From NCBI GenBank assembly GCA_015272325.1, contig JACYLU010000028.1:1-64000 (forward strand): 64,000 nucleotides of DNA, written 5' to 3'. Position 1 is the first letter of the stretch. Every line of letters begins with the position of its first letter. This document shows, piece by piece, positions 1-8,237 of this stretch. Source of the stretch: Synechococcales cyanobacterium C42_A2020_086. GTDB taxonomy: Bacteria > Cyanobacteriota > Cyanobacteriia > Elainellales > Elainellaceae. Under the pieces are notes generated by a model. That model made no database searches. It was not told the origin of the DNA and was given only the letters and a program-made list of their open reading frames with translations. The translations under genes and the position numbers were made by a program.

Positions 1-252
1 CTCCTATCCTCCGACGAGGCATAATTTGTCCTTCAATTTTGATGCGTTTACCCTGGCCTTTATGAGATTGGCGCAGTTGCGACAACCGGGCCCGTTGAAA
101 ATCCCTGTACCACCAAGATCTGGGGACATGGATACATCGAAGAAGTCTTGCTCCAAGTCTATCCAGCTGGACAGGAGTAAGGGCGTTTCAAAATCGACAC
201 CATAATTGTCTGCGCGCAACGATCTCCTGGTTTTTACCAAGAGTCTAAGCTG

Positions 253-299: not shown

Positions 300-1268
300 A
301 TGATGGCAGTATCAACACATACAATCTCTGCTAGTGGTAATGACGAAAACCGCAGTGATTTAACTAATATTCGGGGAATTGGAGCGAGCCGGAAGCGGTG
401 GCTAAATTCAATCGGGATTTATACCATCGCAGATCTATCCCAGGCTTCAGTCGATGAGGTTGAGTCCAGTCTAAAGAGCGGTGGACGGTTATTATCCCGC
501 GGTGAGTTAGAAGAATGGATTGCCCAAGCCAAAACCGTTGACCTGCAAAATCAGCCAGCAGAATCGTTTTGTGCCCTGCCTGATCCATTGTTAGAGACAG
601 AACCGTTAGAGACAGAACCCGCATCCTCTTCACTCGTAGCGGCTTCTACAGACTGGATTGCAGTTGCGGTTTTCAAAGTAGAATATCAAACTCGGCAGAT
701 AGCTGGAAAAGTGGAGCAGCGAACCCTTATCCATCATCTGGAAACGAACGCTACTGAGACTTGGTCGGGTTTTGAGACGCAACTGATTCAACCCTGGATG
801 CTCGATCGCATAGAAGCAACATTGCCTCAACCGGAAGCGGAAAACCCTGTTGTGCCAGAAATTATTCAGCTACAGGTCATCCAGTCCCATCAGATCGAGC
901 AGCCCATGATAGCAGATCACGCGCATCCCCTCTTTCCTGGAGCAATCTTGGCCAGTGAGCCATTTGCGCTGGAAGCGTCAGTGCAGCTTACAGGACTATC
1001 CGATGCAAATTTGCAGAAACAAATTCCTTATAGCATTCAATGTACTGTTCATGATGTTTCAACGGGTTCAACTACTATTCTAGGAACCGCAACTCTGAAT
1101 ATTTCCTCTACAGCCAATATTACTTACAAAGCATTGTTGCCAGAATTGATGCTGTCTCATTCAGGTATCTACCGTTTGAAAGTATCTGTTACATTACAGA
1201 ATTCGCAAGCAGCTGATCGCCCAACGGCTTCCGGATATTTCAAAGTTCCGATGCTCCAAGTCGTATAG
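300..1268 (+). CDS. Helix-hairpin-helix protein with unrecognised C-terminal domain
   Basis: Residues ~25-80 read as a helix-hairpin-helix/DUF4332-like unit (TNIRGIGASRKRWLNSIGI, then a DLSQAS helix), a fold that usually binds DNA or proteins. A low-complexity acidic linker with a repeated LETEP follows. The C-terminal ~200 residues form a beta-rich domain ending in YFKVPMLQVV. The next gene, 11 bases downstream, ends in a homologous domain with the identical last ten residues, so the pair arose by duplication with a head swap. I do not recognise the C-terminal domain. The start is chosen by an AGAAGGA ribosome-binding site at 287-293; ATGs at 294, 300 and 303 are all in frame and 300 or 303 has the best spacing. 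No signal peptide or membrane segment is visible. Confidence 0.75.
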   Translation: MMAVSTHTISASGNDENRSDLTNIRGIGASRKRWLNSIGIYTIADLSQASVDEVESSLKSGGRLLSRGELEEWIAQAKTVDLQNQPAESFCALPDPLLETEPLETEPASSSLVAASTDWIAVAVFKVEYQTRQIAGKVEQRTLIHHLETNATETWSGFETQLIQPWMLDRIEATLPQPEAENPVVPEIIQLQVIQSHQIEQPMIADHAHPLFPGAILASEPFALEASVQLTGLSDANLQKQIPYSIQCTVHDVSTGSTTILGTATLNISSTANITYKALLPELMLSHSGIYRLKVSVTLQNSQAADRPTASGYFKVPMLQVV

Positions 1269-1279
1269 GGATTGCAACC

Positions 1280-2695
1280 ATGAGTAACTTCGATTGGAAA
1301 TGTTTCCTGAAACGGTGGAGTCAGGAAATGATAGAGTCGATGGGCAACGAGCGCAACAAACTGCCGCCAGCGGTGATTGAGTCCGGTTGGTTGGGTTATC
1401 CAGGGGCAACAGAAGAACAAATTGCGCAAGCTGAAACTCGGCTAGGCACAGCATTACCTCCCTCTTATCGAGCCTTTCTCAAAGTCACCAACGGTTGGCG
1501 ACAGATGACTCCTTTCATCTATCGTTTATGGTCTACAGAGGAAATTGATTGGTTTACTGTCAGACATCCAGACTGGTTGGACACGCTATTAGAGAAATCG
1601 AGATATCTTTCCCCAACTGCTCCGAATGTCAGCTCCCCTCTTCCTTCGATTCCCGATGAAGATTATTTTGCCTATGGAGATGAACAGGATTGCAGAAAAA
1701 TTCGGGTTGAATATCTCCAAACTGCCCTGGAGATTAGTCAACGGGGAGAAGCTGCGATTTATTTGCTCAATCCTCAGATCGTGACCGAGGCAGGAGAGTG
1801 GGAAGCTTGGTTTCTGGGAGATTGGCTGCCCGGAGCGGATCGCTATCGATCGTTTCAGGACATGATGCAAGCAGAATATGAGAACTTTTTAGAACTGAGA
1901 GAAACACCTGCTGTACCGGTGTCAACTGCAGTCATGGAACGGAGCAATAACCTTTCTGTTCCCTCTGACATGCTCTCTCAAGCAAAAACAACTCCTTCAA
2001 ATATGAAAAATTTCTCAAATAAAAGATTAGAAATACCTTTTGAAAAGCCTTTTGAAAAGAATGATGTTCAGCCCATTTTGGAAATCTCAGATGAATGGGG
2101 AAAAGTTGCCTCATTTACAGTAGAAATTCAATCGAAGCATAGAGAAAAATACTCAGAACAACGAACTATTGTTCGTCATATAGAAACAGAAACCATCGCA
2201 ATTTATCCCAATGTAGATACTAAAACTGTTCAACGCTGGATATCAGCTCAGTTAAAAGTAATCATCAATCAACCTCTAGAGGAAACAGTGGACCTGGAGA
2301 TCGCGCAACTGCGAATGATTCGCGCTCCACAAACTGAAACTGAAATGATGGTCGATCGAGCACATCCTCTCTTTTCTGCACCCATTGCAATTGGTGAACC
2401 GTTTACGTTAGAAGTCTCGATGAATATAGTGGGTTCAACTGCTGTAAGCCTTGCAGAACGGCAATTGGTCTATCAGACTCAATGTTTCGCCCACAATCTA
2501 TCAACGCAAATAAAAACTTGTTTGGGAGATGTGATTACAAAAGCTCCGATCGCAGATCAGCCTGTCTACACGGCTCGTTTCCCTGAGATAACCTTGCATC
2601 AACCCGGGATTTATCGTCTGACCATTTGGGTAACTCTGCAAAATATGACCGCATCGCCAGGCTACTTCAAAGTTCCAATGCTTCAAGTGGTCTAA
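1280..2695 (+). CDS. SMI1/KNR4 (SUKH) family protein with the same C-terminal domain
   Basis: The N-terminal ~180 residues look like a SUKH/SMI1-KNR4 domain: an E-x-x-I-x-x-x-E-x-x-L-G helix (EEQIAQAETRLG), then LPPSYRAFLKVTNGW, and later an FGDWLPGADRY-like acidic strand. SUKH proteins occur as immunity proteins of polymorphic toxins and as adaptor proteins. After a polar linker (~200-260) comes the ~200-residue domain shared with the preceding gene, with matching landmarks (QRTIVRHIET, DRAHPLFSAP, PGIYRLTIWVTLQN) and the same ending YFKVPMLQVV. The tight spacing implies co-transcription. An internal ATG at 1328 is an alternative start. The function of the pair is unknown; toxin immunity, scaffolding and cargo binding are all possible. 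Confidence 0.75.
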   Translation: MSNFDWKCFLKRWSQEMIESMGNERNKLPPAVIESGWLGYPGATEEQIAQAETRLGTALPPSYRAFLKVTNGWRQMTPFIYRLWSTEEIDWFTVRHPDWLDTLLEKSRYLSPTAPNVSSPLPSIPDEDYFAYGDEQDCRKIRVEYLQTALEISQRGEAAIYLLNPQIVTEAGEWEAWFLGDWLPGADRYRSFQDMMQAEYENFLELRETPAVPVSTAVMERSNNLSVPSDMLSQAKTTPSNMKNFSNKRLEIPFEKPFEKNDVQPILEISDEWGKVASFTVEIQSKHREKYSEQRTIVRHIETETIAIYPNVDTKTVQRWISAQLKVIINQPLEETVDLEIAQLRMIRAPQTETEMMVDRAHPLFSAPIAIGEPFTLEVSMNIVGSTAVSLAERQLVYQTQCFAHNLSTQIKTCLGDVITKAPIADQPVYTARFPEITLHQPGIYRLTIWVTLQNMTASPGYFKVPMLQVV

Positions 2696-2870: not shown

Positions 2871-3177
2871 CTACAACAATGCATTCAGGCTTTGCACAAT
2901 CGGATCATGTCGGCGACTTGAGATTTGCTGGTAGGTTTCGACTAGTTCACGAACCAGTTTGTCCTCAATATGGCTAACCTCTTGCTTAGACTGAGCACTG
3001 TTGAAACAGTACTTGATATTGATGAGACTGGAACAGAACTGCCGATAATTCCTTGAGTAGCGCATCATCAATCGACTCTGACCACTCAAAGGGATGCTCA
3101 ACGGCCTGCAGCAGGCGCATTTTGGCCTTGCAGCGAATGACTGTCCGATGGGGACGCTTATAGTTAATCTGTTCCAT
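2871..3177 (-). pseudogene. Frameshifted small gene of unknown function
   Basis: Two overlapping minus-strand frames read as one ~100-residue protein split near 2996-3010. The 5' part starts MEQINYKRPHRTVIRC at 3177 and runs to SHQYQVLFQQ. The 3' part continues SKQEVSHIEDKLVRELVETY to a stop at 2871. Neither half alone has a sensible second end. I do not recognise the family; it is basic at the N-terminus and helical after that. A dyad lies just upstream of the start. It may be a real frameshift or a base-calling error. Confidence 0.45.
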
Positions 3178-3183
3178 ACCTCT

Positions 3184-3214
3184 GTATACTGTACAACGAT
3201 GCCATGCAGTATAC
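3184..3214. promoter_or_regulatory. Inverted repeat upstream of the frameshifted gene, possible operator
   Basis: GTATACTG (3184-3191) and CAGTATAC (3207-3214) are exact inverted 8-mers 15 bases apart, placed immediately upstream of the ATG at 3177. The size and symmetry fit a dimeric-repressor operator. Bases 2696-2870 and 3215-3459 show nothing else I can support. Confidence 0.4.
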
Positions 3215-3459
3215 ATTTCTTAGCGTCTCAAATTCAACTTACGTAAGATGTATTTTGAGGATGACCCAAGTTTAACAATCAAGCCTAACAATCAAGTCTA
3301 ACACTATCCGAGTTCGCTTTGACCCATCTACAATCCTCTCCTGCGATTGCCCCATCAATAACGCTGATTAAAATTGACAGGGGGGATAGCCAGCGATTTG
3401 CAACATCTGCTACTGTTTTTGAGGTGAGGTCTGTCCATAGCGGCAGACTTTGGGATTTT

Positions 3460-3502
3460 GTAGCAGCGAATACCAGAAAGGGGGTCCGCTTGCCTCTACG
3501 CT
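3460..3502 (+). promoter_or_regulatory. NtcA-activated (class II) promoter of the Nit1C cluster
   Basis: GTAGCAGCGAATAC at 3460-3473 is a perfect GTA-N8-TAC NtcA box. After 23 bases comes TACGCT (3497-3502), which fits the TA-N3-T -10 element. The 22-23 base spacing is the canonical arrangement for NtcA-activated cyanobacterial promoters. A start site near 3508 would leave a ~30-base leader before the first gene. This agrees with the nitrogen-starvation induction known for the homologous Synechocystis sll0783 cluster. It also argues against starting the first gene as far upstream as 3450. Confidence 0.8.
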
Positions 3503-3536
3503 GCACATACGGTGTCTACTCAACTGCGGTTCAGCT

Positions 3537-4466
3537 ATGCCCATGGTCTCTGCTCGCTTAGAAACGTTGCTCAAGGCTGGTGAGTTCATTGTTTCGGCTG
3601 AGCTTACCCCACCTCGCCATTACGACACCACCCAGTTTGTAGAGGCGGCAAACCTCGTTGCTCCCTTTGTGGATGTGGTGCAGATTAATGATAATTTGTT
3701 GTCTCAGGCTCGTTTGTCGAATCTAGTCGCCGCGCATCTGGTGCAGCAGGTCGGGCTAGAGCCGGTGATTCAGTTCACACTGCGCCACCGCAACCGAATT
3801 GCACTGCAGAGCGATCTGCTGGGGTTTGCGGCCCTGGGCGTGCGCAATGTGATGGTGCTGGGAGGCTACCCTTGCACAATTGGCACCGATCCAGATGCCA
3901 AGGACGCCAGCGATCTATCCTCGGTGGAAGCGATTGCTAGCATCACTCGATTGACCCGCGAAGGTCAGTTCTTCAACGGCGATCCGATCGACCCCGCACC
4001 GGATTTCTTCGTTGGCACGATCGACTTTCCCTGTGTCAATCCCGCCGACCTCGACAGCAGCATGGCCCGGCTGGCGGCCAAGATTGAGGCGGGAGCACGC
4101 TATATTCAGGTGCAGGCGATTTTTGACCTGGCACCAATGCAGGCGTGGATGGCGGAAGTGCGAGCGCGCGGGCTGCACGAACGGGCCCATTTCATTGCGG
4201 CGATTTTTCCCTTTAGCGGCGCTAAGCGGCTGGAATTTTTGCAGTCGGTTCCTGGCCTCAGCGTCCCCGATGATCTGCTGACTCGCATTCGCAGTGCCGA
4301 CGGTGAGGCCGAAAGCCTGCGGATCACGCTAGAGCTAGTTGAGGGCATTCGCCAGATCGACGGCATCCGTGGGCTGCACATGCGCTCGATTGGCGCTGAA
4401 GATTGGGTTCCCCGAATTGTTGAAGCGGCTGGGTTACGTCAACTTTTGGTTTCATCGGCTTCCTAG
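3537..4466 (+). CDS. Methylenetetrahydrofolate reductase-like TIM-barrel protein
   Basis: The protein resembles the MetF catalytic domain (flavin-dependent reduction of 5,10-methylene-THF to 5-methyl-THF). Landmarks are VSAELTPPRHYD near the N-terminus, where MetF has its catalytic Glu, VVQINDN, QFTLRHRNR, the GVRNVMVLGGYP strand-loop and FVGTIDFPCVNP. At ~309 residues it matches the length of stand-alone bacterial MetF-like proteins. ATGs at 3537 and 3543 both sit just behind the NtcA-type promoter. It ends 30 bases before the MSMEG_0572-type gene and so is the first gene of the Nit1C transcript. MetF is not a standard Nit1C member that I know of. It could supply one-carbon chemistry to the pathway or act on a different substrate. 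Confidence 0.82.
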   Translation: MPMVSARLETLLKAGEFIVSAELTPPRHYDTTQFVEAANLVAPFVDVVQINDNLLSQARLSNLVAAHLVQQVGLEPVIQFTLRHRNRIALQSDLLGFAALGVRNVMVLGGYPCTIGTDPDAKDASDLSSVEAIASITRLTREGQFFNGDPIDPAPDFFVGTIDFPCVNPADLDSSMARLAAKIEAGARYIQVQAIFDLAPMQAWMAEVRARGLHERAHFIAAIFPFSGAKRLEFLQSVPGLSVPDDLLTRIRSADGEAESLRITLELVEGIRQIDGIRGLHMRSIGAEDWVPRIVEAAGLRQLLVSSAS

Positions 4467-4496
4467 GGTTTAGTTTTTTGGAACGAGGAGATTATC

Positions 4497-4979
4497 ATGC
4501 CTGAAGTTACAGCGCCTGCCCATCAAGCGGGAGATTTCTTTGTCGATTACGAAGAGAAGGTGTTTCCCGATGTGCAAGCAGAGCCGGGAGAGAAAGCTCT
4601 GGTGACGTTTCATACCGTGGCCTTTGAAGGCTCAATCGGTCTGGTGAATTTGCTGCAAGCTACGCGGCTGTTGCGCAAAGGGTTTGAAACCTCGATTCTG
4701 CTCTATGGCCCCGGAGTAACCCTGGGTGTGCAGCGCGGGTTCCCCAAGATCGGCGACGAAGCCTTTCCCGGCCATCAGGCGATGAATAATCAGATCAAGA
4801 AATTCATGGAAGAAGGCGGCAAGGTGTACGCCTGTCGCTTTGCGCTGCAGGCCCTTTACGGTCACGGCGAACCCTCGCTGATGCCTGGTATCCGCCCGAT
4901 TAGCCCGCTGGATGTACTGGATCTGGTGCTGATGCACCGCAAGGATGGGGCGTTTATTCTCGATACCTGGACGCTGTAG
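4497..4979 (+). CDS. MSMEG_0572 family nitrogen-starvation response protein
   Basis: This is the Sll0783/MSMEG_0572-type protein of Nit1C clusters: 160 residues with the DsrE-like pattern [22 protein letters not shown], a helix and [17 protein letters not shown], then [20 protein letters not shown]. In Synechocystis the homologue is among the most strongly nitrogen-starvation-induced genes. Its biochemical role is unsettled. A strong ACGAGGAG ribosome-binding site precedes the ATG. The downstream gap to nit1 (about 600 bases) carries repeats and a dead gene, which is unusual for this otherwise compact operon. Confidence 0.88.
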
Positions 4980-5009
4980 CGGCTTAGTGAATAGATACGG
5001 CTGGGACAG

Positions 5010-5056
5010 TCAAACGCAAGCAGAATGTAGTCAAAATGTAGTCAAAATGTAGTTAA
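5010..5056 (+). repeat. 15-base dispersed element followed by three 11-bp tandem repeats
   Basis: TCAAACGCAAGCAGA (5010-5024) is identical, and in the same orientation, to copies at 47175-47189 and 49839-49853 in the guanidine locus. It runs directly into three head-to-tail 11-mers, AATGTAGTCAA twice and AATGTAGTTAA once (5024-5056). Bases 5057-5277 hold no gene I can support. Confidence 0.7.
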
Positions 5057-5277
5057 ACGGAGGATGAGCAAAGGCATCGCTGTACTCGTCGATCGCTGAT
5101 CTGGAAATGGACAAAGAGGCTGCTGCCCTTATTCATTCCTTGAATCGCTGCGATGGGGTCCGCTGGGCTTGGCTCATCCTGCCTTGGTCCTACGACTCCC
5201 TATCCGGTTACCGGGCTATCTACCGGACTATCTCAAATTTTCTAGCCATTCTCCAGCCAGTTCTGCGAGTCAGCGCG

Positions 5278-5533
5278 ATGTTAGAGTTGCATCCGAGCTG
5301 TGAATGCTGCAACCGCGATTTGCCTGCCCGAATCGCGAGAGACCGTAATCTGCCCGTTTGGGTGTACCTTGTGCTGACACTGTGCTGAACATCACCTCAG
5401 TTTCATCTGCCTAAACTGCGGTGGCGAGCTGCTGCAATACCCAATTCGCTCAGCGACAGGGGCTTATTTCCTGCAAACTCCCGCCTCCACCCAGCGAGTC
5501 TACCAGCCCGACGGCTGTGGCACAGGCAACGAG
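5278..5533 (+). pseudogene. DUF1272 zinc-ribbon-like protein, frameshifted and interrupted
   Basis: The first frame gives MLELHPSCECCNRDLP, the typical DUF1272 N-terminus. The match then moves to another frame: VICPFGCTLC, an in-frame TGA (5375-5377), then HCAEHHLSFICLNCGGELL, a YPIRSA segment and PASTQRVYQP. These are the family's cysteine and C-terminal landmarks in the right order. At least one frameshift (around 5340) and one stop are needed to read it through. The end is approximate, because the frame runs on into nit1. It sits between two Nit1C genes in the operon direction. DUF1272 function is unknown; the cysteines suggest metal binding. It is decayed here unless the sequence has errors. 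Confidence 0.75.
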
Positions 5534-5585
5534 CGATCATCGACCTTACTACTGGACTTAAATATCCTGGATCTAGACAGCAACT

Positions 5586-6581
5586 ATGGCGGATTCTTCA
5601 GTGATTCGAGCGGCGGCAGTGCAAATCAGCCCGGTGCTATTTAGCCGGGAGGGCACTACCGAAAAAGTGCTCCAAGCGATAGCCGATGCTGCTAAAGCGG
5701 GAGCAGAGCTGGTTGTATTTCCGGAAACCTTCATTCCTTACTACCCCTATTTCTCGTTTGTGCAGCCGCCGGTGCTGATGGGGAAAGAGCACATGCGCCT
5801 TTACGACGAAGCGGTAGAAGTGCCGAGTGCCGTCACCGATGCTGTGAGTCGGGCAGCTCGCTCCTATCAGGTCGTCGTCGTGCTAGGCGTCAACGAGCGG
5901 GACCACGGGTCGCTCTACAACACGCAGCTTGTGTTTGATGCCAACGGGACGCTGTTGCTCAAGCGCCGCAAAATTACGCCGACCTTCCATGAGCGCATGG
6001 TTTGGGGGCAGGGCGATGGAGCGGGCTTGGCGGTGGTGGAAACTCGCGTGGGGCGGGTGGGAGCACTGGCCTGCTGGGAGCACTACAATCCGCTGGCTCG
6101 ATTCGCGTTGATGACCCAGCACGAGCAGATCCATTGCGCCCAGTTTCCCGGTTCGATGGTGGGGCAAATTTTCAGCGAGCAGATCGAGGTGACCATTCGC
6201 CATCATGCCCTGGAAGCCGGCTGCTTCGTGATCAACGCTACGGGCTGGCTCACGCCCGAGCAGGTGCAGCAGATCACGCCAGACGAGAAGCTACAGCGGG
6301 TCCTCAGCGGTGGCTGCTACACGGCCATCGTCAGCCCAGAAGGATCGCTACTCTGCCCGCCCATTACCGATGGCGAAGGCATGGCGATTGCCGATCTCGA
6401 TTTGTCGCTGATCACCAAACGCAAGCGAATGATGGACTGTGTCGGTCATTATGCTCGCCCGGATTTGCTGCAACTCAAACACAATCCTAGCGTCGGGTCG
6501 GTGCTCAGCGATCCGGTGGTGCTGCCGCCTGTGCCCTCAGTGCTGCCGCCTGCCTTGGAGCTAGAACCCCAGAACCCCTAG
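5586..6581 (+). CDS. nit1: Nit1-type nitrilase
   Basis: Carbon-nitrogen hydrolase of the nitrilase family, hydrolysing nitriles to the acid plus ammonia. The catalytic triad is visible: Glu in [13 protein letters not shown], Lys in [14 protein letters not shown] and Cys in [14 protein letters not shown]. At 331 residues it has normal nitrilase length, and it ends in a Pro-rich tail. It is the signature enzyme of the Nit1C cluster, homologous to Synechocystis Sll0784. In Pseudomonas the cluster is required for growth on cyanide as nitrogen source. The radical-SAM gene follows with almost no gap. The physiological substrate in cyanobacteria is not established. Confidence 0.92.
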
Positions 6582-6642
6582 TTTGCCTCTATCCTGCTTC
6601 TCTCTACCCCGCTTGCCTATGCCGCCGCTTGCCACTACTGCC

Positions 6643-7734
6643 ATGAACACGCAACAGCTCATTACCGAACTGCAGTCCCACGGTTTGAAGATTGTCAGCG
6701 AGGGAGGAGCAGCCGGACGCAAAGGCGGCGCGGGTCCGTCGGATCACAAGGCAATCACGATTGCCGGTACCACCATCATGGTGCCTATCTACACCGATAC
6801 GGCCGCTGCTTCCCCCTACAGCGCTCGCATCAATCCCGCAACTCAGCAGGCAACGCTGCATCTGGGCGACGACACCATTGCTGCCATCAGCTTTCCGCCG
6901 CAGCCCCAGTTCTACAGCCTGACCACCACCGACGGCATTCCCTATTGGAAAATTGCCCTGCTGCACAGCCGGGACGTGCTAGCCACCACCGTGCTGCAAA
7001 CCTGCATGCGCTATAGCGATGCGGCAACGGCCTGCCAGTTCTGCGCCATTGGACAGTCGCTTGAGGCCGGACGCACGATTGCCCGCAAAACGCCGTCGCA
7101 GTTGGCAGAAGTGGCAGAAGCGGCCGTGCGGCTAGATAGCGTGCGGCATCTAGTGATGACCACCGGCACCCCCCACACGCCCGACCGAGGCGCGGCCTAC
7201 CTCACCGACTGTGCAGCTGCCGTCAAACAGCGCGTGGATCTGCCCATTCAGGCGCAGTGCGAACCCCCTGCTGACTTTGCGTGGTTTGAGCGGATGAAGG
7301 CAGCCGGCGTAGACAGTCTGGGGATGCATCTAGAAGCTGTGACCCCAGAGGTGCGGGCGGCGATTATGCCGGGAAAAGCCACGGTGTCGATCGAAACCTA
7401 CTTTGAGGCCTTTGCGGCGGCGGTGCCTGTCTTTGGCTGGGGGCAGGTGAGCACCTACCTGCTGGCGGGTCTAGGCGACGAGATGCCGGCAATCGTGGAG
7501 ATGTGCGACCGCTTGATTCAGCTTGGGGTGTATCCGTTTGTGGTGCCCTTTGTGCCCATCACCGGCACGCCGTTGCAGCACCATCCGGCCCCAGCGAGCG
7601 AGTGGATGTATGAGCTGTATCAGCAGGTGGCGACACTGCTGAATCGGGCAGGCATGTCGTCCGAGTCGATTAAGGCAGGCTGTGCCAAGTGCGGCGCATG
7701 CTCGGCGCTGTCTACCTTCGAATCGAAGCGCTAG
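6643..7734 (+). CDS. Radical SAM protein, MSMEG_0568 family
   Basis: This is the Nit1C radical-SAM enzyme (Sll0785 type). The [4Fe-4S] cysteines appear in TCMRYSDAATACQFCAIGQS, which is C-x9-C-x2-C and not the textbook C-x3-C-x2-C. Further Cys residues near the C-terminus (AGCAKCGAC) could ligate an auxiliary cluster. A TIM-barrel continues with VTTGTPHTPDRGA-like and GMHLEAVTPEVR segments. The start was set at MNTQQLITELQSHGLKI, the usual family N-terminus; in-frame starts at 6583 (TTG) and 6619 are weaker. It lies between nit1 and the ACT-domain gene. The reaction is unknown. Confidence 0.88.
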   Translation: MNTQQLITELQSHGLKIVSEGGAAGRKGGAGPSDHKAITIAGTTIMVPIYTDTAAASPYSARINPATQQATLHLGDDTIAAISFPPQPQFYSLTTTDGIPYWKIALLHSRDVLATTVLQTCMRYSDAATACQFCAIGQSLEAGRTIARKTPSQLAEVAEAAVRLDSVRHLVMTTGTPHTPDRGAAYLTDCAAAVKQRVDLPIQAQCEPPADFAWFERMKAAGVDSLGMHLEAVTPEVRAAIMPGKATVSIETYFEAFAAAVPVFGWGQVSTYLLAGLGDEMPAIVEMCDRLIQLGVYPFVVPFVPITGTPLQHHPAPASEWMYELYQQVATLLNRAGMSSESIKAGCAKCGACSALSTFESKR

Positions 7735-7781
7735 GTCCTCCTGGGTTAACCCAGAATCCGAGACAGAGGAGGCGTGAAGCC

Positions 7782-8237
7782 ATGGCTGAAGGAGTCGAAG
7801 ATAGATCTGAAGAAACAGCTTGTCCCATCTCCCGAACTGCTGGAGAAACCGATCTTGCTATTCTGCTCTCCTCAATGCAGCCGATTCTGCAAGATGGCGA
7901 ATATGTGTTCTGTACCCTTCCTGAAGGCTCGTTGCGCGATCTTCCCCACACCCTCGATCCGATTGGGCTATTTCGAGAAACCGAAGGACTCACTCTGATT
8001 CTCTCTCGTCAGCAGGCCGAAGCCGCTAATCTGGACTACACCTCAGTTCATCGCCTGATTACCCTCTCGATTCACTCTAGCTTAGAAGCGGTGGGTTTTC
8101 TCGCCGCCGTTACCCATCAACTCGCCGCTCACCAGATTAGCGTTAATCCGGTGTCTGCCTACTATCACGATCATTTGTTTGTTCCTGCTGCTCGCGCCGA
8201 TCAGGTAATGGAGCTACTGATGAGCTGGAGGCGGTAA
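7782..8237 (+). CDS. ACT-domain protein (COG3602/DUF2241 type)
   Basis: A 151-residue protein with GETDLAILLSSMQPIL, GEYVFCTLPEG, LEPIG-like LDPIGLFRETEGLTLIL, then HSSLEAVGFLAAVTHQLA and NPVSAYYHDHLFVPAARAD. These are the hallmarks of the two-ACT COG3602 family. ACT domains usually sense amino acids. A strong AGAGGAGG ribosome-binding site (7765-7772) fixes the ATG at 7782. It sits between the radical-SAM and acetyltransferase genes, a place where I know of no standard Nit1C member, so it may be a recruited regulatory subunit. Confidence 0.85.
   Translation: MAEGVEDRSEETACPISRTAGETDLAILLSSMQPILQDGEYVFCTLPEGSLRDLPHTLDPIGLFRETEGLTLILSRQQAEAANLDYTSVHRLITLSIHSSLEAVGFLAAVTHQLAAHQISVNPVSAYYHDHLFVPAARADQVMELLMSWRR

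What the first reader, a model, noticed from the sequence alone, without database searches (positions are those of the whole stretch)
300..2695. Two neighbouring proteins with swapped heads and a shared, unrecognised C-terminal domain
The two genes end in homologous ~200-residue domains with the identical last ten residues YFKVPMLQVV and shared landmarks (AHPLF, GIYRL, TLQN). The N-terminal heads are unrelated: helix-hairpin-helix in one, SMI1/KNR4 in the other. Head-swapping on a constant tail is typical of modular conflict, cargo or adaptor systems. The constant domain has no name I know.
Basis: partly seen in the sequence, partly recalled or inferred. Interest (0 to 1): 0.72.

Follow-up and report, generated by a model that had tools for sequence, protein, structure and literature searches.

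The report
Two sister proteins, one protease-linked locus
Two neighbouring cyanobacterial proteins share a real, previously unnamed tail; they are old sister genes from a small conserved gene cluster that, in several related species, also carries an intracellular protease and its inhibitor, and in this genome the cluster is partly broken by a jumping gene.

Summary
Genes A (294-1268) and B (1280-2695) share a C-terminal domain of about 205 residues (39% identity, E 1e-42) that matches nothing in Pfam, NCBIfam, PHROGs or PADLOC. The heads differ: a weak helix-hairpin-helix in A, a clear SMI1/KNR4 in B.

The "head-swapping conflict module" reading is only partly supported. The tail was found in 10 of 36 genomes of one cyanobacterial family and in no further genome of a 386-genome phylum sample. 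SMI1-tails of four genomes form one clade, so A and B look like old paralogs, not fresh swaps.

New here: the tails belong to a conserved locus: PAS-LuxR regulator, P187, HHH-tail and/or SMI1-tail, protealysin-like M4 protease, emfourin inhibitor, small gene SML. In four genomes the protease directly follows a tail gene. Window bases 1-55 are the end of an insertion sequence that cuts P187 (last ~41 codons remain); SML is frameshifted; protease and inhibitor are absent from this genome. A and B remain open and constrained (dN/dS about 0.2).

AlphaFold2 gives the tail a beta-beta-beta-alpha part plus a nine-strand beta-sandwich. My best mechanism, an adaptor tail serving a regulated intracellular protease, is inferred, not shown.

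The parts
1..55 (.). End of an insertion sequence (terminal repeat GATGCGTTTACCCTG at 41-55), cut by the contig start
   Evidence: Same 55 bases at G000:C34 (100%) and G000:C33 (98%); the C34 copy is 592 bp with near-inverted ends CAGGGTAAACGCATC and a transposase-like frame
56..180 (+). Truncated 3' end of the P187 gene (last ~41 codons and stop)
   Evidence: 88% identity to residues 146-187 of the 187-aa protein of G021, no other piece in the genome; 95% to the intact copy in L003
294..1268 (+). Protein A: HHH head + linker + shared tail (324 aa)
   Evidence: dN 0.18 / dS 0.92 against the G012 orthologue
348..536 (+). Helix-hairpin-helix head of A (residues 19-81)
   Evidence: HHH_5 E 0.001, DUF4332 E 0.0036, both below Pfam cut-offs
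540..644 (+). Linker of A (Pro/Glu/Ser/Ala-rich, 26% hydrophobic)
645..1268 (+). Shared tail in A; predicted beta-beta-beta-alpha part at about 672-821, nine-strand beta-sandwich at about 852-1262
   Evidence: pLDDT 76, pTM 0.61
1280..2695 (+). Protein B: SMI1/KNR4 head + linker + shared tail (471 aa)
   Evidence: dN/dS about 0.13-0.2 against G012 and G021
1280..1900 (+). SMI1/KNR4 (SUKH) head of B (residues 1-207)
   Evidence: Pfam PF09346 E 4e-10; similar to free-standing SMI1/KNR4 proteins of Streptomyces and Calothrix plasmids, 32-38%
1901..2086 (+). Linker of B (Ser/Pro/Asn/Glu/Lys-rich)
2087..2695 (+). Shared tail in B
2871..3216 (-). SML, small ~100-aa gene of the same locus, split over two frames (frameshifted) here
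   Evidence: SML profile hits two overlapping ORFs, 2986-3216 (E 1e-25) and 2871-3101 (E 2e-15)

Best explanation
A and B are old paralogous two-part proteins that belong to a small, lineage-restricted, probably cytoplasmic locus built around an intracellular protealysin-like protease and its inhibitor. SHOWN: shared tail; several head types; conserved neighbours (PAS-LuxR regulator, P187, M4 protease, emfourin, SML); purifying selection; truncation of P187, absence of protease and inhibitor and a frameshift in SML in this genome. INFERRED: the tail is a docking domain for a common partner, and the heads, joined by flexible linkers, bring that partner to different targets (nucleic acid through HHH, proteins through SMI1). 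The most likely partner is P187, through sandwich-sandwich contact, or the M4 protease, which directly follows whichever tail gene is present. The LuxR protein would switch the set on, and emfourin would hold the protease in check until needed. In this genome A and B would be what is left of the set.
For: Tail homology. Conserved order LuxR - P187 - tail gene - M4 - emfourin - SML in G021 and G022, pieces of the same order in G009 (L034, L085) and G018 (L030, L092). G018 has only HHH-tail, followed 41 bp later by M4; G021 and G022 have only SMI1-tail, followed directly by M4; in G009 a tail end precedes M4: the protease goes with the tail, not with a particular head. G005 keeps P187 and M4 with an SMI1 remnant between them. 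The M4 genes keep HExxH and NExxxD and match the M4 and emfourin families. P187 lies in 16 of 36 genomes and in 8 of the 10 that have the tail. A 154-aa protein of the G011 locus matches both the tail and P187 profiles. Linkers are long and polar. dN/dS about 0.2.
Against: No interaction or function is shown. The three loci that hold both tail proteins (window, G012, G011), and G003 and G006, lack emfourin anywhere in the genome (G006 is only 68% complete); G000 lacks the M4 protease too. So the tail can persist without the protease. The HHH match is below the Pfam cut-off. Tail-P187 homology rests on one bridging sequence; directly the profiles do not match above shuffles. The protease link counts four genera at most.
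Confidence: 0.35

Rival explanations
1. Inter-bacterial conflict locus: the M4 protease is a toxic effector, emfourin its immunity protein, and the SMI1-tail and HHH-tail proteins are additional immunity or adaptor parts; the window holds orphan immunity genes after loss of the toxin.
For: SUKH (SMI1/KNR4) proteins are common immunity proteins of polymorphic toxins (PMC3482391). Protealysin-emfourin has been proposed as an effector-immunity pair because Serratia protealysin cuts FtsZ and RecA and its inhibitor is in the same operon (PMC9505478). Patchy presence, decay and loss of the protease while B stays open fit orphan immunity.
Against: No secretion or delivery gene adjoins any locus; contractile-sheath genes not enriched with the tail; no variable toxin domains; P187, HHH-tail and a LuxR regulator are not usual parts of such loci; the SMI1-tail protein is conserved at 59-89% rather than hypervariable.
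Confidence: 0.25
2. The beta-sandwich proteins (P187, tails, 154-aa protein) are structural or ligand-binding proteins, for example carbohydrate-binding or a protein assembly, and the protease only matures or clears them.
For: Foldseek matches are beta-sandwiches of adhesin repeat domains, the Wzt carbohydrate-binding domain and RhoGDI. P187 is a highly conserved single-domain family present without tail or protease in several genomes.
Against: TM-scores only 0.4-0.55 and 9-15% identity: fold class, not family. No export signal apparent by eye at the P187 N-terminus. The P187 model failed (pLDDT 37).
Confidence: 0.2
3. Cargo of an extracellular contractile injection system, with the tail as the loading signal.
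For: Apparently leaderless proteins with unlike heads on a constant part; contractile-sheath genes are common in the family (23 of 36).
Against: The window's genome and G006, G009, G015 and G022 carry the tail but no sheath gene; no injection genes near any locus.
Confidence: 0.05
4. Ordinary lineage-specific duplicates on their way to loss, without a joint function.
For: Locus broken or fragmentary in the window, G012, G003, G005 and G006.
Against: dN/dS about 0.2 in intact pairs, and gene order conserved across genera.
Confidence: 0.15

Closest known systems
Protealysin-emfourin operon (Serratia proteamaculans; PMC9505478)
   Same: M4 protease with protealysin-type propeptide motif followed by an emfourin-family inhibitor gene, in related loci
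   Different: Here the pair is the end of a longer locus with P187, tail-fusion genes, a divergent PAS-LuxR regulator and SML; and the window's genome has no such pair
SMI1/KNR4 (SUKH) family, PF09346
   Same: Head of B is a clear member (E 4e-10) and resembles free-standing SMI1/KNR4 proteins of Streptomyces and Calothrix
   Different: Joined through a linker to the unnamed tail; no toxin partner found
HHH_5 / DUF4332 type helix-hairpin-helix
   Same: Head of A, residues 19-81
   Different: Below the family cut-offs; carried on an unrelated tail
Ig-like beta-sandwiches (Wzt C-terminal domain, adhesin ester-bond repeats, RhoGDI)
   Same: Overall fold class of the tail's C-terminal part
   Different: TM-score 0.4-0.55, 9-15% identity, extra beta-beta-beta-alpha part in front; no family relation shown

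Membership tests
SMI1/KNR4 (SUKH-1, PF09346), head of B | Profile score over the curated cut-off | tested here: met
   40.8 bits against cut-off 25.4, E 4e-10
Polymorphic toxin immunity (Imm-SUKH) | Gene next to a cognate toxin gene | tested here: not met
   No recognisable toxin gene beside the loci other than the M4 protease in a subset, which has its own inhibitor
Helix-hairpin-helix (HHH_5), head of A | Profile score over the curated cut-off | tested here: not met
   19.9 bits against 27; likely HHH by pattern only
Protealysin-emfourin operon (related loci, not the window) | M4 catalytic domains with HExxH and NExxxD | tested here: met
   Related loci: PF02868 E 1.2e-57, PF01447 E 1.4e-28; motifs present. 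Not met in the window's genome
Protealysin-emfourin operon (related loci, not the window) | Adjacent emfourin (PF20242) | tested here: met
   Over the cut-off beside M4 in G021, G022, G009, G018; absent from G000
Protealysin-emfourin operon (related loci, not the window) | Protealysin propeptide (PF16485) | tested here: inconclusive
   19.0 bits against 28.1, with the PPQML motif
Contractile injection system cargo | Genome carries a contractile injection system | tested here: not met
   No Phage_sheath_1C match in G000
Any named family for the tail | Match in Pfam, NCBIfam, PHROGs or PADLOC | tested here: not met

The most novel reading that the evidence does not exclude
A previously undescribed protease-adaptor system: a LuxR-controlled intracellular protealysin-emfourin pair that works through a family of beta-sandwich proteins (P187 and tail), in which different HHH and SMI1 heads choose the target to be cut or protected.
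Probability: 0.2. Interest if true: 0.7.

Novelty: new variant of a known kind. Interest (0 to 1): 0.4.

Why it matters
The cellular role of protealysin-type proteases and of emfourin is largely open. A conserved locus that ties such a pair to two unnamed protein families, one with different heads on a common tail, gives concrete candidate partners to test. It also gives boundaries to two unannotated families (tail, P187).

Tried and rejected
Scan of viral contigs with both tails: no relative. No match of B in phage records, or of A, P187 or the G018 tail in plasmid records; only the SMI1 head matched, plus one chance-level hit. Tail profile against solved structures: nothing. Direct tail-P187 profile comparison: no better than shuffles; only the bridging protein links them. 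P187 structure: failed, pLDDT 37, not interpreted. Contractile-injection cargo: tested by co-occurrence, not supported. Search for the missing part of P187 at the start of contig C4, which begins with the other end of the same kind of insertion sequence: not there. Orthologue of the LuxR gene in the own genome: only 43% and 31% paralogs. Calothrix and Streptomyces neighbourhoods of SMI1 homologues: no tail, protease or emfourin by annotation or reading; a third Streptomyces record carried no annotation. Paper searches found no description of this locus.

Full report
OBSERVATION. The two ORFs are at 294-1268 and 1280-2695, + strand, 11 bases apart. Their last ~205 residues align at 39% identity with E 1e-42 and end in the same ten residues. 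B's head is SMI1/KNR4 above the Pfam cut-off; A's head is HHH-like but below it. The tail has no match in Pfam, NCBIfam, PADLOC or PHROGs. The whole genome holds only these two copies.

DISTRIBUTION. In the 36 held genomes of the same family (which are also all that the order search returned), 10 carry the tail. In a 386-genome sample of the phylum only the window's own genome matched (the first look of that search is loose, so remote relatives may be missed). One named relative is the MAG 'Cyanobacteria bacterium RM1_2_2', whose matching contig has the same two genes, the second broken. Viral, phage and plasmid collections gave no tail.

LOCUS. Comparing the window and 29 other neighbourhoods with profiles built here shows a recurring order: a divergent PAS-LuxR regulator, P187 (a 187-aa family with no Pfam match), HHH-tail and/or SMI1-tail, an M4 protease, an emfourin, and a small gene SML, usually convergent. 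Pfam names the protease Peptidase_M4_C (E 1.2e-57) and Peptidase_M4 (E 1.4e-28) with a weak protealysin propeptide, and the inhibitor Emfourin (E 8e-28). The proteases keep HExxH and NExxxD. G021 and G022 have the whole order with SMI1-tail only. G018 has HHH-tail followed 41 bases later by M4, and the rest of an M4 plus emfourin at the start of another contig (L092). G009 has SMI1 and P187 on one contig (L085) and the end of a tail, M4, emfourin and SML on another (L034). G005 has P187, an SMI1 remnant, M4 and SML. The window, G012 and G011 have both tail genes and no protease beside them. P187 is present in 8 of the 10 tail genomes and in 8 of the 26 others (hypergeometric p about 0.01, worked out by hand).

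EVOLUTION. In the tree of tails, SMI1-tails of the window, G012, G021 and G022 form one clade (100/98), and the window's and G012's HHH-tails pair (88/91); the HHH-tail of G018 is not placed with support, and G011's two tails group together (91/89). So the fusions are mostly old and inherited; a local duplication or conversion in G011 is possible. Substitution estimates (dN 0.18 / dS 0.92 for A; 0.09 / 0.70 for the SMI1 head and 0.12 / 0.76 for the tail end of B, all against G012) show purifying selection.

THE WINDOW'S COPY IS INCOMPLETE. The contig starts at window base 1. Bases 1-55 recur at two other places of the genome and are the end of an insertion sequence (592-bp copy at C34 with CAGGGTAAACGCATC ends and a transposase-like frame). 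Right after it begin the last ~41 codons of P187. The rest of P187 is not in the assembly, nor is a close LuxR orthologue, the M4 protease or an emfourin. SML is split over two frames. A and B stay open. Because the contig ends here, what lies upstream cannot be read directly.

STRUCTURE. AlphaFold2 of the A tail with the window and L003 rows: pLDDT 76, pTM 0.61; strands in 10-41 and a helix at 45-59 form a first part, nine strands in 70-206 a sandwich. Foldseek finds adhesin repeat domains, the Wzt carbohydrate-binding domain and RhoGDI, mostly at TM 0.4-0.55 and 9-15% identity, and scattered viral sandwiches: a fold class, not a family. P187's own model failed. A 154-aa protein in the G011 locus matches the tail profile (hhalign score 38.5 against a shuffled maximum of 21.5) and the P187 profile (45.9), over overlapping stretches, which suggests a common origin of P187 and the tail's sandwich; the direct comparison is not significant.

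MECHANISM. What is shown is anatomy and gene order. I infer that the tail is a docking domain and the linked heads choose targets; that P187 or the protease is the partner, because the protease follows whichever tail gene is present; and that emfourin and the LuxR regulator control the activity. In Serratia the pair is one operon, the inhibitor binds the active-site region 1:1, and an effector-immunity role has been proposed (PMC9505478). SUKH domains are frequent immunity proteins (PMC3482391), so a conflict reading is the main rival. A contractile-injection cargo reading is unlikely, as the window's genome and four other tail genomes have no sheath gene.

VERDICT. A real, unnamed, lineage-restricted domain with unlike heads, in a locus that joins a known protease-inhibitor pair to two unnamed families. 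Function open. Moderate interest.

Noticed in passing
window 1-55; G000:C34:346684-347275; G000:C33:102599-102697; G000:C4:1-55: A 592-bp insertion sequence with near-inverted ends (CAGGGTAAACGCATC) and a stop-containing transposase-like frame (resembles the ISAs1 kind, from memory); several contigs of this assembly end in it.
   Followed up: partly
window 3450-8237: Downstream genes look like a MetF-like protein, an MSMEG_0572-like protein, a nitrilase and a radical SAM protein, as in the known Nit1C-type cluster (from memory, not searched).
   Followed up: no
L029:4340-5765: In the relative G012 the SMI1-tail gene is itself split into two ORFs, and G003 keeps only a tail fragment with stops: the locus decays repeatedly.
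   Followed up: partly
L075:9036-9608, L077:9231-9794, L079:9072-9605, L076, L078, L080, L081: P187 is an unnamed, well conserved family (invariant LL-x-CL stretch and a conserved glycine-rich GYI end) found without tail genes in several genera, with three copies in G035.
   Followed up: partly
L035:6610-7452: In G011 the P187 position holds a 280-aa protein only loosely alignable with P187.
   Followed up: no
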